Below are positions 19,743 through 25,438 of a DNA stretch of 64,000 nucleotides, piece after piece. The position numbers and the translations under genes are program-made. The stretch comes from Sphingomonadales bacterium 28-55-16 (lineage in GTDB: Bacteria > Pseudomonadota > Alphaproteobacteria > Sphingomonadales > Sphingomonadaceae). Under the pieces are notes generated by a model. The model made no database searches and was not told where the DNA came from. It was given only the letters and a program-made list of their open reading frames with translations. Where the stretch lies: positions 1 through 64,000 of the forward strand of contig NCGG01000004.1 in NCBI GenBank assembly GCA_002278855.1, read 5' to 3'. Numbering within the stretch: the first letter of the stretch is position 1; every line of letters begins with the position of its first letter.

Positions 19743-20468
19743 ATGTCGGTCATGTCATTGCTGATCACACGGAGTTGCGCGGAGTTGCAGCTGGCATGGC
19801 AATCTGTGGCATTTGAAAGGCTTGGCATCTGCCTTGCGCGGGAAAGCTTGGATCCCGAAACGAGCGGACTTCTGACTTTTCAAGGTGTTTCGTTCGCGTT
19901 CCATATTCAAGCGATGGCGCCTTTAGACGTAAAAAATTTCGTATTTTGTCCCGCCGATAGCAGCCGATTTCATTCCGCTATCCATTTTGATTTCGGACCG
20001 TCCGTTCGCGGCGGCAACCGGATCCCCGCTGTGGTAAAGGTTTTGCTGCAACTTGGGATATCGCTTGGGCGGGCGTTGCAAGCTGAGGGCGTTTTTTGGG
20101 CCCCGGGGTCGATAATGTCGGGCTTTGATTATTACGCTGAAGCAGTTAGCCAGTATATCAATGGCGCCGCTTTTCCGGCCCTGCTGTGCGTAGATTTCGA
20201 TACCTCGGACACAGGCGTTGTGAGATCACATGGGCTCCATTGGTTGTGCGGACAAGAGCTTGCTTTTGAACATGCCCCCCTAACATCAAACATAGCGATG
20301 CGATATGTTGTCCGATTGGTCCATGATCTTGCCACGAAAGGTTTGGTGGACCAAAAAATGCACGTGCCCGGAATGACGGTTGGGGAGACTGTTTCCCTCA
20401 CGCCCGATGGGCACAATAAACTATTAAGTGCCCGTCTGATACTGGCTGATGAGTCCGCAAGCGGATAA
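19743..20468 (+). CDS. Unknown SOS-controlled protein, possibly DUF4261-like
   Basis: 241 residues, no signal peptide and no clear membrane helix. I do not recognise a function. The middle and end (GVFWAPGSIMSGFDYY, ALLCVDFD, VVRSHGLHWLCGQELAFEH, PGMTVGETV) remind me of DUF4261 proteins, from memory only. The ATG at 19743 is the first in frame after the LexA-boxed promoter; the second Met (19752) is an alternative. It ends 25 bases before the AHH-nuclease-like gene, so the two form one transcription unit and probably act together in the DNA-damage response. Confidence 0.7.
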   Translation: MSVMSLLITRSCAELQLAWQSVAFERLGICLARESLDPETSGLLTFQGVSFAFHIQAMAPLDVKNFVFCPADSSRFHSAIHFDFGPSVRGGNRIPAVVKVLLQLGISLGRALQAEGVFWAPGSIMSGFDYYAEAVSQYINGAAFPALLCVDFDTSDTGVVRSHGLHWLCGQELAFEHAPLTSNIAMRYVVRLVHDLATKGLVDQKMHVPGMTVGETVSLTPDGHNKLLSARLILADESASG

Positions 20469-20493
20469 TGTAGGCGCATTTGGTGAGGGCTTT

Positions 20494-20967
20494 ATGCGGA
20501 CTTTCAGCAGGCTTTCGAGGTCCAACGCAATGCGTGGGTTCCAATCGCACCATTTGATACCCGTCGGCGTATTTGCCAATCACGCCTTCGCCAAAGCGTT
20601 TGAAGCTGTGCGCCCCGATGGCTTTGACGTGCGCTGTTTTTTGCGCAACGGTCTGTATCTGCCAGCGACTGAATTAGCGGCCTTGCGCAGCGGCTTGCCA
20701 CTCCATCGCGGTCCGCATCGGCGCTATAATGAACTAGTGGCTTACCGCGTAGCAGCCATTTTTCGTGATTTTCCGAGCATCTCGTATAAGAAAGCCGCGC
20801 GGGAAGATGCCGTGGAAAGATTACACTTGCTCGCTGGCGCTCTAAGGACTGGGCTGTGTCGATCACAATTGTGGATTTTGCTCAATCAGCGAGATCCTTT
20901 GAACACGGATGTTAACTTCGACCATCTTGATAGCGCTTGTGATGCAATTTGGCTGGCAACAAAATGA
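20494..20967 (+). CDS. AHH-family (HNH/endonuclease VII-like) nuclease-like protein
   Basis: 157 residues from ATG 20494, chosen for the strong GGTGAGGG (20482-20489) at correct spacing; an in-frame ATG at 20449 would overlap the upstream gene. Motifs fit the AHH nuclease family of the HNH/EndoVII superfamily: S-H-H-L-I-P at residues 18-23, N52 with LP at 56-57, then L-P-L-H-R-G-P-H (68-75) and YNELV. These His residues would bind metal and catalyse. No signal peptide or toxin-delivery domain, so it looks like a stand-alone cytoplasmic protein. Target (DNA or RNA) cannot be told. Confidence 0.68.
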   Translation: MRTFSRLSRSNAMRGFQSHHLIPVGVFANHAFAKAFEAVRPDGFDVRCFLRNGLYLPATELAALRSGLPLHRGPHRRYNELVAYRVAAIFRDFPSISYKKAAREDAVERLHLLAGALRTGLCRSQLWILLNQRDPLNTDVNFDHLDSACDAIWLATK

Positions 20968-21187
20968 CGTAAATGCATTTTAAGACTAGACGAATGTTGC
21001 GGAACACGGGTAACGCCGTCCCATAATGTATGCGCTATCCGCCCAATCGCTTCTACTTCGACTTACGCGCCCTTAGGCGCGCCTGTTTTTGTCGGCTCCG
21101 CTCGGCAAACCCGCCTAAGGGCCTTTCGACACCCCACAAAATCTTACAGCCCACGATTGGGGCATATCAGCGAAGTTGCCATTTATC
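20968..21187 (+). promoter_or_regulatory. Candidate leucine attenuator region of leuA
   Basis: 220-bp leader of leuA. It contains a Leu-rich 16-codon frame (21026-21076), a hairpin GCGCC-CTTA-GGCGC (21067-21080) followed by GCCTG and TTTTT (21086-21090), and an alternative long-range stem in which GCCCTTAGGCG (21069-21079) pairs perfectly with CGCCTAAGGGC (21112-21122). The two structures share the same bases and exclude each other, and the leader-peptide stop codon lies inside them. A weaker stem GGCTC/GGGCC (21094-21098/21119-21123) competes with the long one. I see no convincing promoter in the leader; TTGCGG/CATAAT would start transcription inside the peptide frame. Confidence 0.55.
21026..21076 (+). 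CDS. leuL: Candidate leu operon leader peptide (16 residues)
   Basis: Frame MYALSAQSLLLRLTRP with five leucines in sixteen residues, four of them at positions 9, 10, 11 and 13, two read by CTA. The TAG stop overlaps the 5' arm of the downstream hairpins. This is the pattern expected of a leader peptide sensing charged tRNA-Leu upstream of leuA. A clear Shine-Dalgarno is missing and the peptide is inferred from composition and position only. Confidence 0.5.
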   Translation: MYALSAQSLLLRLTRP

Positions 21188-22858
21188 ATGATGCTATCTG
21201 ACCCATCTCGAAAATACCGACCTTTTCCGCAAGTAGATTTGCCGAACCGCCAATGGCCAAATCGAACCATTGATCGGGCGCCGCGCTGGCTTTCGACCGA
21301 TCTGCGTGATGGCAACCAGGCGCTTATTGATCCGATGGGCGCTGAAAAGAAGAAGCGCTTTTTCGATCTTCTGCTGAAAGTGGGCGTAAAAGAAATCGAG
21401 GTTGGTTTCCCAAGCTCGGGTGCGACCGATTTCGACTTCATCCGCGGCTTGGTCGACAGTGGTCGAATTCCGGCTGATGTTACTATCCAGAGCCTAACGC
21501 AATCACGGCGCGACCTGATCGAAAAAACCTTCGCGAGCATGGCGGGTGCGCCGCGGGCCATCGTCCATCTTTATAATGCCGTGAGTCCCGCATGGCGCGA
21601 TATTGTTTTTAACCTCGACAAGGCAGGCGTTAAGGCGATTGCGGTGGAAGGCGCCAGCATTCTTAAAGAACAAGCGGCAAAATATCCTGAAACTGACTGG
21701 CATTTTGAATATAGCCCCGAGACATTTTCGACAGCAGAGCTCGAATTCAGCCTTGAGGTATGTGAAGCGGTGATGGACGTGCTAGAGCCGACTTCGGCAA
21801 AGCCAGTTATTCTGAACTTGCCAGCTACGATTGAGGCAGCGATGCCAAACGTATACGCGGACCAAATTGAGTGGATGTGCAACAATATTAGCGTGCGCGA
21901 CCATGTGGTCATCAGCCTGCATCCGCATAATGACCGCGGTAGCGGAATTGCGGCTGCTGAACTCGGTTTATTGGCGGGTGGTGATCGGATCGAAGGCTGC
22001 TTGTTCGGCAATGGTGAGCGCACAGGAAATGTCGATTTGGTTACGTTGGCGCTCAATATGTACACCCAGGGATTGAACCCAGGCCTTGATTTCAGCGACA
22101 TTGATGAGGTCATCCAGACGGTAGAATATTGCAACCAGCTGCCCGTGCATCCGCGCCATCCTTATGCGGGAGAACTTGTGTTCACGGCATTTTCAGGGTC
22201 GCACCAAGACGCGATTAAGAAAGGGTTTGCAGCGCAGGAACGTCAGAATGACGAAATCTGGCGGGTGCCGTATTTGCCAATCGACCCCGCTGATCTTGGA
22301 CGCAGCTATGAGGCTGTCATTCGCGTCAACTCGCAAAGCGGCAAGGGCGGTGTCGCATGGGTGATCGAGCAGGATCAGGGTCTGAAATTGCCCAAGCGCA
22401 TGCAAGCGCATTTCTCGAACACGGTCCAAGAGCTGTCGGACAAGACTGGCCGCGAATTGACGGGAAGCGATATCTGGGAGGCGTTTGAAGCGCGCTATCA
22501 CCTGAAAGGGCAGGGGCGTTTCCAACTGATTGATTTCCACGAAAGCCAAAGCCAGCGGCAAAAGGATGAACGTATTTTTGCCGGCAACATCCGCATTGAT
22601 GATGTTGACCAAAGCGTCAGCGGACGTGGCAATGGATTGATTTCAAGTCTCGCAAATGCGCTTGAAGAGGCGCTTGGCGGGCCGCTAAACATCATTGACT
22701 ATAGCGAGCATGCCATCGGCCATGGCACCGATGCCCGAGCGGCGGCTTATGTCGAATGCCGGGTCGGCGACGGGCCCATTTTATTTGGCGTCGGGATAAG
22801 TCAGGATGTGGCCACAGCATCCGTCAGGGCGATCCTCAGCGCTGCTAACGGGGCATAG
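21188..22858 (+). CDS. leuA: 2-isopropylmalate synthase (long, type 2 form)
   Basis: First committed step of leucine synthesis: acetyl-CoA plus 2-oxoisovalerate. 556 residues from ATG 21188 (ATG 21191 equally possible; the TTG at 21176 is unlikely). The catalytic domain shows [22 protein letters not shown]-type [13 protein letters not shown], and the metal-binding HPHNDRGSG; the [10 protein letters not shown] motif follows. The C-terminal regulatory LeuA dimer domain (about 430-550) ends with the [11 protein letters not shown] region, where leucine feedback acts. Its final 14 bases overlap the convergent gene on the other strand. Confidence 0.95.
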
Positions 22859-24908
22859 CTGCCTTCGGCGCCTCAAGGAGCATTTTAGCGGCGTGAGGGG
22901 CGTCAGAGGACGTTAGGCTCCCCGCCGGTAATGCATGTGCTTCTATCTGCGGCGTGCCGAACAACCAGCCCTGTCCAAATTGGCAACCGAACGATTCCAG
23001 TTCCGTCCCTTGGAATTCGTTCTCAATTCCCTCGACTAAGACGTTCATCCCGAGGGAATCGGCGATATGCTTTATGGCCAATACAAATGACCAGTCCGCA
23101 CTTTTGTCTAAATGCTTCTTGATGAAGGACTGATCGATTTTCAGCGTGTCGAAGGGCATCGTTTGCAGATATGCCAGCGATGAATAGCCGGTGCCGAAAT
23201 CATCAATGCTTACTTTGATACCCATCGCATTTAATTGCGTGATGGTGCGGGCTGAGTGTCCCGGGTTCGTGGCGGCCGTGCTTTCTGTTAGTTCAAGGCG
23301 CACCCATTTCGGGTTTGCTCCGGTCTCAAGCAAGATGTCACGCACCAGCGTTACAAAATGAAGCTGTTGAAACTGTTGAAGGGCCACATTTACACTAATA
23401 TATAGGTCCGGATTGTGGGTATTGGTGGCGTGGAAACGAACGGCGGATCGGAACGCTTCGCGCAGAACCCATGTTCCAATAGGCACGATAAGGCCGCAGG
23501 CCTCCGCTGTTGGAAGGAAATCATTGGGCATGATAACGACGTCCGGTTCCTTACGCCATCTCACCAAAGCCTCAAGGCCAACCGTCTCGCGATTGGACAG
23601 CGAAACGATTGGCTGAAAGTGCAGTTCAAAGGCGGAAGTTTCAACGGCGCGTCGCAAATCAATTTCAAGTTCGAGCCGTGCCAGCGCGGCGTTACGCATT
23701 TCGGGCGCGAAATGATAGGTCTGTTCCGGGCCATTCGCCTTGGCCTCATACATCGCAACATCTGCATCACGCAGCAATTCGTGCGCATTTTGATATTCTG
23801 GGCCATTGAGCGCGATGCCGATGCTGGCCACGCCCTGTACATTATTTAGACCAATGCGATGAATTGGCTGCAGGCATTTGTGGATTTCGTTCGCCACATC
23901 ATTGGCAATTTCGCGAACTTCGGGGGAACGGATCAAAATGACAAACTCATCACCACCAACGCGGGCGAGGAATACGCGGTCGACCCACTCTTCCTGATCA
24001 AAGGTTTCGACCACATGCCGCAACCGGTTCGCCAATGCATTTAAAAGTATATCACCCGCATTGTGGCCAAGCGTATCGTTGACCAATTTGAAGCCATCCA
24101 GATCAATGTACATCACGGCGGTCTGATAGTCGGCTGTGCGCTTTTCGAGGTCAAAAGCAGATTGGATCTCGCTTTCGAAGGCTGCGCGGTTGGGAAGTCC
24201 GGTTAGCGGATCCGTTGCCGCGTTTTCCAATAACATGTCCGCATGCCGCGCACGTTTAAACACGCGGCCAAGTTGCGTGCCAATTTGCAGCAAGATATCC
24301 ATCAACTGTTCGCTGGGCTCTGCAATTTCAGTTTGGTAGAACTCCATCGCGCCCACAAGTTCGTGGCCCATGATGACCGGAACCGAAATGCTGGCGCGCA
24401 GTCCGGCGCGTTCGGCGGTAGATGCGCGGGTGAACCCGTGTTGGGCATAAATATCGGGTGTCCAGATGGGGCTATGTTCTAAAAACAAGCGCCCCGGTGC
24501 GGATGCACATGGCCATGCTAAGATTTTCCGAGAGGCTTCAAGGAACGGAAAGGCTAAATCTTGGTGGGTGGAAAACCAGATATCCGTTCCTTCCAACCGT
24601 TCGTCACCTTGCGGGCCAATACGGATTAACGCGTGCCCAACCGACCAGTTGTGATGCTCACAAATTTCCTGAAGAGCGAAGCGCAAAGCGTGCATCGGGG
24701 AATCTGAATCATTTGCGAAACTTGAGATTCTATTAAGCAGCTTCAACCTGCCTTGATGGACATAAAGCTTGCGTAGCCCAACCTCGGCAATGTCCTCTGC
24801 AGCGCGTCGTGCGGCCTTCTCCCGAGCAATCTCGCGCTCTAGGCGCTGGCATTTCTGATTGAGCTCTTCGACATCCTGCAATGCGTGCCTGTCCGGACCG
24901 GCGTTCAT
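22845..24908 (-). CDS. GAF-GGDEF-EAL cyclic-di-GMP enzyme
   Basis: Bifunctional c-di-GMP protein of about 687 residues. An N-terminal coiled coil (about 10-60; [27 protein letters not shown]) leads into a GAF-like domain (about 60-220), then GGDEF (about 230-395; RVGGDEF intact, so cyclase activity is plausible) and EAL (about 410-665; [36 protein letters not shown] intact, so phosphodiesterase activity is plausible). The start is ATG 24908, which overlaps the stop of the upstream H-NOX gene (ATGA); a start at 24932 would overlap further. H-NOX proteins commonly control such partners, so nitric oxide sensing is the likely input. Confidence 0.92.
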
Positions 24909-25438
24909 TGCCAGGTCAACTTGATATGGCACATGCGCGCGCCATCATGCATGCAGGACGGCTGATCGATTGCAATTGTTTCATCATAATGTGTTGCGAG
25001 CCCCAGAATGAAGCCATGGGCCAAATGACACAGTCGTCGCGGCGAATTGTACCCCATGGTGATAGTGTTTTCCGCTTCAACGAAGTTGAAATGCGGGCAT
25101 GCCGCGCCAGCATATAGCTTGCGTACTTCTGGATGGATGATGGTATTCAAACTGAGAATAAAGGCGCGGGCATTAAGAGCGTTTTCAAAAAACTGGGGGT
25201 AGCGATCAAAAAGTAAAGGGATCGAGCCTTCGCCAATGATCTGCAGAAGTGCGGACGGGTCTGCTGCGGTTAGATTTGCGCAAGCGGCCAGCAGCGTATC
25301 AAGATCAGCGTCAGGATAGCTTCCAAGTGATGTATATACGCCGGAAAGGCCTGTCATGGAGAGCATTTCGTCCCATGCCGCTGGCCCTAATTTTGCAACG
25401 ATGACCTCTTCGACTATGTTGAAAATGACACCCTTCAT
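24905..25438 (-). CDS. H-NOX (heme nitric oxide/oxygen binding) sensor protein
   Basis: 177-residue cytosolic heme sensor. It begins MKGVIFNIVEEVI and has GVYTSLGSYPD, both typical of the H-NOX N-terminal subdomain. The proximal heme ligand His102 lies in I-I-H-P-E-V-R-K-L-Y, and the propionate-binding YxSxR motif is Y130-N-S-P-R134. Coupled by ATGA to the GAF-GGDEF-EAL gene, the well-known H-NOX/c-di-GMP pairing. GGGGTGGGTAA precedes the start. Whether a distal Tyr allows O2 binding cannot be judged by eye. Upstream is a divergent gene for a nitronate monooxygenase. Confidence 0.9.
   Translation of the reverse strand: MKGVIFNIVEEVIVAKLGPAAWDEMLSMTGLSGVYTSLGSYPDADLDTLLAACANLTAADPSALLQIIGEGSIPLLFDRYPQFFENALNARAFILSLNTIIHPEVRKLYAGAACPHFNFVEAENTITMGYNSPRRLCHLAHGFILGLATHYDETIAIDQPSCMHDGARMCHIKLTWQ

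What the first reader, a model, noticed from the sequence alone, without database searches (positions are those of the whole stretch)
20968..21187. Candidate leucine attenuator with a leader peptide and mutually exclusive stems
MYALSAQSLLLRLTRP (21026-21076) has five Leu codons in sixteen, including two CTA. Its stop codon sits inside a hairpin followed by TTTTT (21067-21090) and inside the 5' arm of an 11-bp perfect long-range stem (21069-21079 with 21112-21122). This is the layout of a transcription attenuator before leuA. The wiring is not textbook: the T-run follows the first hairpin, not the last, and no clear Shine-Dalgarno or promoter is seen, so the mechanism may be unusual.
Basis: partly seen in the sequence, partly recalled or inferred. 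Interest (0 to 1): 0.68.

Follow-up and report, generated by a model that had tools for sequence, protein, structure and literature searches.

The report
Leucine-sensing RNA switch before leuA
In front of the leucine-synthesis gene leuA lies a short leucine-rich coding stretch whose own codons can pair with and hide leuA's ribosome-binding site, so a ribosome stalled for lack of leucine should switch leuA on; this layout recurs across the Alphaproteobacteria, is absent from Rfam, and resembles a poorly understood element known from Actinobacteria.

Summary
In detail: the leader ORF MYALSAQSLLLRLTRP (21026-21076), a small hairpin plus TTTTT, and a perfect 11-bp stem (21069-21079 x 21112-21122) are where stated. 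It is a genuine leucine leader. It was present at all 80 named leuA loci fetched, and a covariance model finds it in 95 of 385 alphaproteobacterial genomes; all 47 new hits that I checked precede leuA. Leucine codons are enriched only in the leader frame (0.47 against 0.09 and 0.02). The long stem is kept by compensatory changes (6 of 10 pairs class-wide).

No U-run follows the long stem in relatives, and hairpin plus T-run is nearly confined to the window's own genus. Instead, the leucine-codon region is complementary to the leuA ribosome-binding site, and the two co-vary (113 loci: 9 s.d. beyond permuted leaders; repeated in a held-out set). In the window the pairing is 21059-21064 x 21173-21178. 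The leader is probably leaderless.

Best reading: translational attenuation. A ribosome stalled on leucine codons frees the leuA start site; one that finishes lets the codons mask it. Same layout as the actinobacterial LEU element (2005); no Rfam family. No expression data.

The parts
20986..21015 (+). promoter-like element: CTAGAC (20986-20991), 18-nt spacer, GTAACG (21010-21015), 10 nt before the leader ATG; implies a leaderless or nearly leaderless leader ORF
   Evidence: comparative: 97 of 130 family loci have a -10-like hexamer close to the leader ATG (6-10 nt in 94) and spacer 18 in 84; SD in only 3 of 130; consensus scan negative
21026..21076 (+). leucine leader ORF MYALSAQSLLLRLTRP
   Evidence: conserved frame and Leu codons in all family loci; in-frame stop inside or at the edge of P1 in 174 of 179 loci
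21059..21064 (+). base stem, 5' strand CGACTT (Arg-Leu codons of the leader)
   Evidence: RNAalifold consensus of 18 genus sequences pairs it with 21173-21178; also in the single-sequence MFE
21066..21081 (+). small hairpin H1 CGCGCC-CTTA-GGCGCG around the stop codon, followed by TTTTT at 21086-21090
   Evidence: partly conserved in Sphingomonadaceae only
21069..21079 (+). stem P1, 5' arm, carries the leader stop codon
   Evidence: 99.2% paired in 97 family sequences; 97.3% paired with 6 of 10 pairs doubly compensated class-wide
21090..21108 (+). inner hairpin P2 inside the P1 loop
   Evidence: RNAalifold on 18 genus sequences
21112..21122 (+). stem P1, 3' arm
21149..21163 (+). small hairpin P3 (GCCC...GGGC) between P1 and the leuA start
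   Evidence: RNAalifold on 18 genus sequences; genus level only
21172..21178 (+). leuA ribosome-binding region: SD-like GAAG (21172-21175) overlapping base-stem 3' strand AAGTTG (21173-21178)
   Evidence: GAAGTTG is unchanged in all 18 genus sequences while its flanks vary; pairs with the leader
21188..22858 (+). leuA, 2-isopropylmalate synthase (start ATG 21188 or 21191)
   Evidence: TIGR00970 and NF002991 above cut-off; Pfam HMGL-like, IPMS_D2, LeuA_dimer

Best explanation
It is a ribosome-sensing leucine leader that controls translation of leuA. Transcription starts at or a few bases before the leader ATG, so ribosomes load on a leaderless 16-codon leader (inferred from promoter spacing). 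Stem P1 brings the leader's leucine-codon region next to the leuA ribosome-binding site, and the two pair (base stem; conserved and co-varying, shown computationally). With enough leucyl-tRNA the ribosome runs to the stop codon inside P1 and leaves, P1 and the base stem re-form, and the leuA start is masked. When leucyl-tRNA is short the ribosome stays on the leucine codons, the base stem cannot form, and leuA is translated (inferred; masking those codons in silico raises accessibility of the leuA start). The sensor codons are thus themselves the anti-Shine-Dalgarno strand.
For: Leader: all 80 named leuA loci fetched have it. Leu fraction of the 8 codons before CGA is 0.466 in frame against 0.094 and 0.020 in the other frames (0.424, 0.102, 0.029 outside the family); the codon before CGA is Leu in 130 of 131 with a freely changing third base. 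Target: all 47 held-out model hits precede leuA, and loci with both LeuA types are known; six family genomes without the element have no leuA of either type. P1. Base stem: own leader:RBS duplex -20.2 against -17.3 (s.d. 0.31) for permuted leaders, exact helices of 8 bp or more 17.7% against 3.8% (113 loci); held-out set -24.9 against -22.0 (s.d. 0.69), 0 of 5000 permutations. Examples: CTTCGGCTGC/GCAGCCGAAG (L159), TGGTCCTTCG/CGAAGGACCA (L155), TCCTCGGAC/GTCCGAGGA (L147), CTTCTTCG/CGAAGAAG (L056). Masking the Leu codons raises RBS accessibility from 0.405 to 0.484 (p 1e-8); masking stop codon or loop does not. No terminator signature. Leaderless start.
Against: No expression or structure-probing data. 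In the window itself the base stem is short (6 bp, one G-U) and invariant in the genus, so covariation there is untested; the masking effect is small for the window (0.45 to 0.51). The swap test compares related sequences, so part of its strength may be shared ancestry. The nucleotide-level invariance of CGACTTA is not explained by this model. In S. coelicolor, changing leuA leader codons had effects not consistent with classical attenuation (cited in PMC1262725).
Confidence: 0.68

Rival explanations
1. Classical transcription attenuation: a terminator and an antiterminator stem compete, and the leader ribosome decides.
For: Leader with Leu codons; hairpin 21066-21081 followed by TTTTT; the small hairpin and P1 share bases and cannot both form in full.
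Against: P1 is not followed by a U-run in relatives; the hairpin with T-run occurs in 19 of 131 family loci, nearly all Sphingorhabdus; the small hairpin is lost in part of Novosphingobium and has no obvious counterpart in several other orders.
Confidence: 0.08
2. Rho-dependent transcription attenuation: when the leader is read freely and leuA is masked, untranslated leader RNA lets Rho terminate; a stalled ribosome or open leuA start prevents it. It could also act downstream of the translational switch.
For: No intrinsic terminator; the stretch between P1 and leuA is C-rich with little stable structure in the window. Rho has been suggested for other leaders without terminators (PMC1262725).
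Against: Gives no reason for the co-variation of the Leu-codon region with the leuA ribosome-binding site; no conserved rut-like sequence was searched for systematically or seen.
Confidence: 0.15
3. The leader RNA is a binding site for a regulatory protein, as proposed for the actinobacterial LEU element; the peptide is secondary.
For: CGACTTA is invariant at nucleotide level in nearly all family members, more than coding or the base stem requires.
Against: Leu codons are kept by synonymous change, and the element is found with leuA only across many families, which is what codon sensing predicts.
Confidence: 0.06
4. Arrest-peptide switch (TnaC-like): the nascent RLTRP-stop peptide senses a small molecule at the terminating ribosome.
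For: Most leaders end in Pro-stop and the C-terminal residues are conserved.
Against: Novosphingobium leaders run on to ...RPWA-stop with P1 kept by compensation; the Pro and stop codons are explained by their position in P1.
Confidence: 0.03

Closest known systems
LEU element of Actinobacteria (Seliverstov et al. 2005, PMC1262725)
   Same: Upstream of leuA; [quoted passage not shown] base stem between the Leu-codon run and the leuA Shine-Dalgarno; enclosed helices; no obvious terminator. A Microbacterium leuA record fetched here shows it: GCTTCTTCT against AGAAGAAGC, 9 bp.
   Different: In the Microbacterium record the stop codon lies beyond the first stem arm, here it lies inside P1; sequence motif differs (CGACTTA + CCC[C/T]T[G/A][A/G]GC here); the published pseudoknot was not established here; homology between phyla not shown.
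Classical leucine attenuator of enteric leuABCD operons
   Same: Leu-rich leader peptide before a leuA gene; ribosome position is the sensor (general knowledge).
   Different: No conserved terminator with U-run, no antiterminator; the output here appears to be leuA translation. No Rfam leader family matches.
Translational attenuators of antibiotic-resistance genes (ermB, msrD type leaders)
   Same: A stalled leader ribosome changes the expression of a downstream gene through its leader RNA (known from the literature; abstracts PMC8274638 and PMC10314930 seen).
   Different: Signal is amino-acid supply rather than a drug, and the masking strand is the sensing codons themselves.
Leaderless trpL leader of Sinorhizobium meliloti (rnTrpL/peTrpL, PMC10117765)
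   Same: Alphaproteobacterial amino-acid leader peptide starting at the transcript 5' end.
   Different: That is a transcription attenuator giving a terminated small RNA; no such terminator here.

Membership tests
Classical transcription attenuator | Leader peptide rich in codons for the pathway product | tested here: met
   Leu fraction in frame 0.466 against 0.094/0.020
Classical transcription attenuator | Intrinsic terminator (GC stem followed by U-run), conserved | tested here: not met
   TTTT within 10 nt after P1 in 7% of 179 loci; hairpin with T-run only in 19 of 131 family loci
Classical transcription attenuator | Antiterminator stem that excludes the terminator and is conserved | tested here: inconclusive
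   H1 and P1 exclude each other but H1 is only partly conserved
LEU element (Actinobacteria) | Lies upstream of leuA | tested here: met
   80 of 80 named leuA loci; 47 of 47 held-out model hits
LEU element (Actinobacteria) | Leader ORF with a run of Leu codons | tested here: met
LEU element (Actinobacteria) | Base stem between Leu-codon run and leuA Shine-Dalgarno | tested here: met
   swap tests; consensus fold of the genus; in the window only 6 bp
LEU element (Actinobacteria) | Conserved pseudoknot inside the base stem | tested here: inconclusive
   H1 stem plus loop:3'-arm pairing can be drawn and 96.6% of cells pair in the family, but P1 as a plain stem explains the data as well
LEU element (Actinobacteria) | Common descent with the actinobacterial sequences | not tested
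   no actinobacterial genome set could be searched; only three plasmid-borne leuA regions were read
Any Rfam 15 family | Score above gathering threshold | tested here: not met
   no match in the window leader or in 20 related loci

The most novel reading that the evidence does not exclude
One ancient, widespread class of leuA translational attenuator, running through Alphaproteobacteria and probably Betaproteobacteria and Actinobacteria, in which the sensing leucine codons double as the anti-Shine-Dalgarno strand, and which has stayed with leuA across both LeuA enzyme types.
Probability: 0.4. Interest if true: 0.75.

Novelty: new variant of a known kind. Interest (0 to 1): 0.6.

Why it matters
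It would give a large bacterial class (sphingomonads, rhizobia and others) a defined leucine control at leuA that Rfam lacks, and would offer a clear and testable mechanism for the actinobacterial LEU element, whose mode of action was left open in 2005. A design in which the sensor codons are themselves the masking strand is economical and makes predictions that synonymous recoding can test directly. It also supplies a ready covariance model (R2) for annotation.

Tried and rejected
Intrinsic terminator reading: rejected on lack of conserved U-runs. Rfam: nothing. Single-sequence folding statistics: weak. TnaC-like Pro-stop arrest: considered because most leaders end in P-stop, set aside because Novosphingobium reads on to WA-stop. 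Free-energy comparison of the leader with leuA coding sequence as a control was of no use, probably because coding DNA is more GC-rich; exact helix length was used instead. Literature: ten full-text searches found no description of an alphaproteobacterial leuA leader of this kind; the main comparative paper on proteobacterial attenuators (Vitreschak 2004) and other subscription papers were not readable here. First protein query used wrong coordinates. Some weak model hits before other genes (e.g. L193, E 0.03) are probably chance.

Full report
WHAT IS THERE. The window lies in a genome that groups with Sphingorhabdus (nearest named leuA loci). leuA (TIGR00970 type) starts at 21188 or 21191. 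Folding statistics alone are unimpressive (z -0.8 for the whole leader, -2.6 for the 71-nt core).

CONSERVATION. A DNA search of 200 family genomes found the core 21050-21081 at high identity in most. All 80 named leuA loci carry a leader of the same form...LLLRLTRP-stop, or ...LTLRLIRPWA-stop in Novosphingobium. In 131 family loci the codon before CGA is Leu in 130, written CTG, CTT, CTA or TTA; the Leu share of the eight codons before CGA is 0.466 in frame and 0.094 and 0.020 in the other frames. In 48 loci from outside the family it is 0.424 against 0.102 and 0.029. The stop codon sits inside or at the edge of the 5' arm of P1 in 174 of 179 loci.

STEM P1. In 97 distinct family sequences 99.2% of cells pair, with 52 double compensations (mainly A-U to G-C where TAG becomes TGG). 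Across the class, on 52 diverse sequences, 97.3% pair, six of ten pairs show changes on both sides, and sliding the partner by one base drops pairing to 51-58%. The small hairpin H1 is conserved in part: one outer pair swaps A-U for G-C in 26 sequences but is broken in 38.

DISTRIBUTION. A model trained on the family (R1) found the element in other alphaproteobacterial families. A class-wide model (R2) matched 95 of 385 alphaproteobacterial genomes at E <= 0.01, one match each. I read 47 hits: all 47 are followed by leuA; three of them (L209, L213, L214) are second fetches of places already used, the rest are new. Both LeuA types occur behind the element. In a check of nine genomes without a model hit, six sphingomonad genomes have no leuA of either type; of three with leuA, one has the element (missed by R1), one has leuA without it, and one was not read. 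Rfam has no matching family.

NOT A TERMINATOR. After P1 there are on average 1.8 T in 8 nt, and TTTT within 10 nt in 7% of loci. A TTTT after the small hairpin is seen in 19 of 131 family loci, nearly all of the window's own genus.

THE LEADER CODONS PAIR WITH THE leuA START. Reading the loci showed the Leu-codon stretch to be complementary to the leuA ribosome-binding site in a different sequence each time: CTTCGGCTGC/GCAGCCGAAG (L159), TGGTCCTTCG/CGAAGGACCA (L155), TCCTCGGAC/GTCCGAGGA (L147), CTTCTTCG/CGAAGAAG (L056), CTGAACCTT/AAGGTTCAG (L113). With 113 non-redundant loci, own leaders bind own start regions at -20.2 kcal/mol on average against -17.3 (s.d. 0.31) for permuted leaders, and exact helices of 8 bp or more occur in 17.7% against 3.8%. 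The second set of 34 gave -24.9 against -22.0 (s.d. 0.69), none of 5000 permutations as low. Shared ancestry may contribute, so the number is not a strict probability. In the window's genus RNAalifold, unprompted, pairs 21059-21064 (CGACTT) with 21173-21178 (AAGTTG), overlapping the SD-like GAAG at 21172-21175, besides P1; both strands are invariant there, so this helix has no covariation of its own in the genus. Masking a 30-nt ribosome footprint over the Leu codons raises the accessibility of the leuA start from 0.405 to 0.484 (p 1e-8); masking the stop codon or the loop does not. Masking the 22 nt upstream of that footprint has a similar effect (0.475), because in Novosphingobium the pairing codons lie further upstream.

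START OF THE LEADER. Family members share TTTAC or CTGGAC, 18 nt, a CATAGG-like hexamer, then 6-10 nt to the ATG, and SD sequences are missing in 127 of 130. The leader is therefore probably leaderless, as reported for trpL of S. meliloti (PMC10117765). In the window these are 20986-20991 and 21010-21015.

MECHANISM. The most economical reading is translational attenuation, as set out in the best explanation. Shown: leader, frame, P1, complementarity, target gene, absence of terminators. Inferred: leaderless start, ribosome stalling, masking in the cell, direction of the response.

COMPARISON. The LEU element of Actinobacteria (PMC1262725) has the same parts: Leu leader, inner helices or pseudoknot, and base stem of Leu codons with the leuA SD; its mechanism was left open. 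A Microbacterium leuA region read here has a 9-bp exact base helix and an 11-bp inner stem; a Nocardia region has the Leu leader but only a weak base helix. Rhizobium and Cupriavidus records show related layouts with 9- and 7-bp exact helices. I therefore say it works like a LEU element and file it as a new variant; common descent is not tested.

LIMITS. No expression data; the locus finder required CGACT, so the invariance of that motif is overstated outside the family (several model hits lack it); subscription papers on proteobacterial attenuators could not be read.

Noticed in passing
window 21059-21065 and related loci: CGACTTA is invariant at nucleotide level, wobble bases included, in almost every family member, more than coding or the base stem needs; some other alphaproteobacteria have a Leu codon in place of CGA but keep CTTA. 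Unexplained.
   Followed up: partly
L001-L134 (e.g. L007 against L028): Within one bacterial family the same leader precedes two different LeuA enzyme types (MLxDPSxKYRPFP type and MTDTILIFDTTLRDGEQ type): the enzyme was replaced while the leader stayed, or the reverse.
   Followed up: partly
genomes G045, G054, G060, G078, G146, G300: Six sphingomonad genomes with no leuA of either type and no element: probable leucine auxotrophs.
   Followed up: yes
window 20449-20967 (+), with 19743-20468 (+): Gene just upstream of the leader encodes an AHH-family nuclease (PF14412) and overlaps a preceding ORF with no known family by 20 bases; possibly a toxin or effector pair.
   Followed up: no
window 22845-24932 (-): GAF-GGDEF-EAL protein convergent with leuA, ends overlapping by 14 bases.
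   Followed up: no
L168 (G437:C2:21400-21453): In an AT-rich genome CGACT pairs with AGTCG directly after the P1 3' arm, making one long hairpin instead of a distant base stem.
   Followed up: no
L208, Cupriavidus plasmid leuA: A betaproteobacterial leuA has a Leu-rich leader, a CGGTTGCCG/CGGCAGCCG stem and a 7-bp exact helix to the SD: the layout may extend beyond Alphaproteobacteria.
   Followed up: partly
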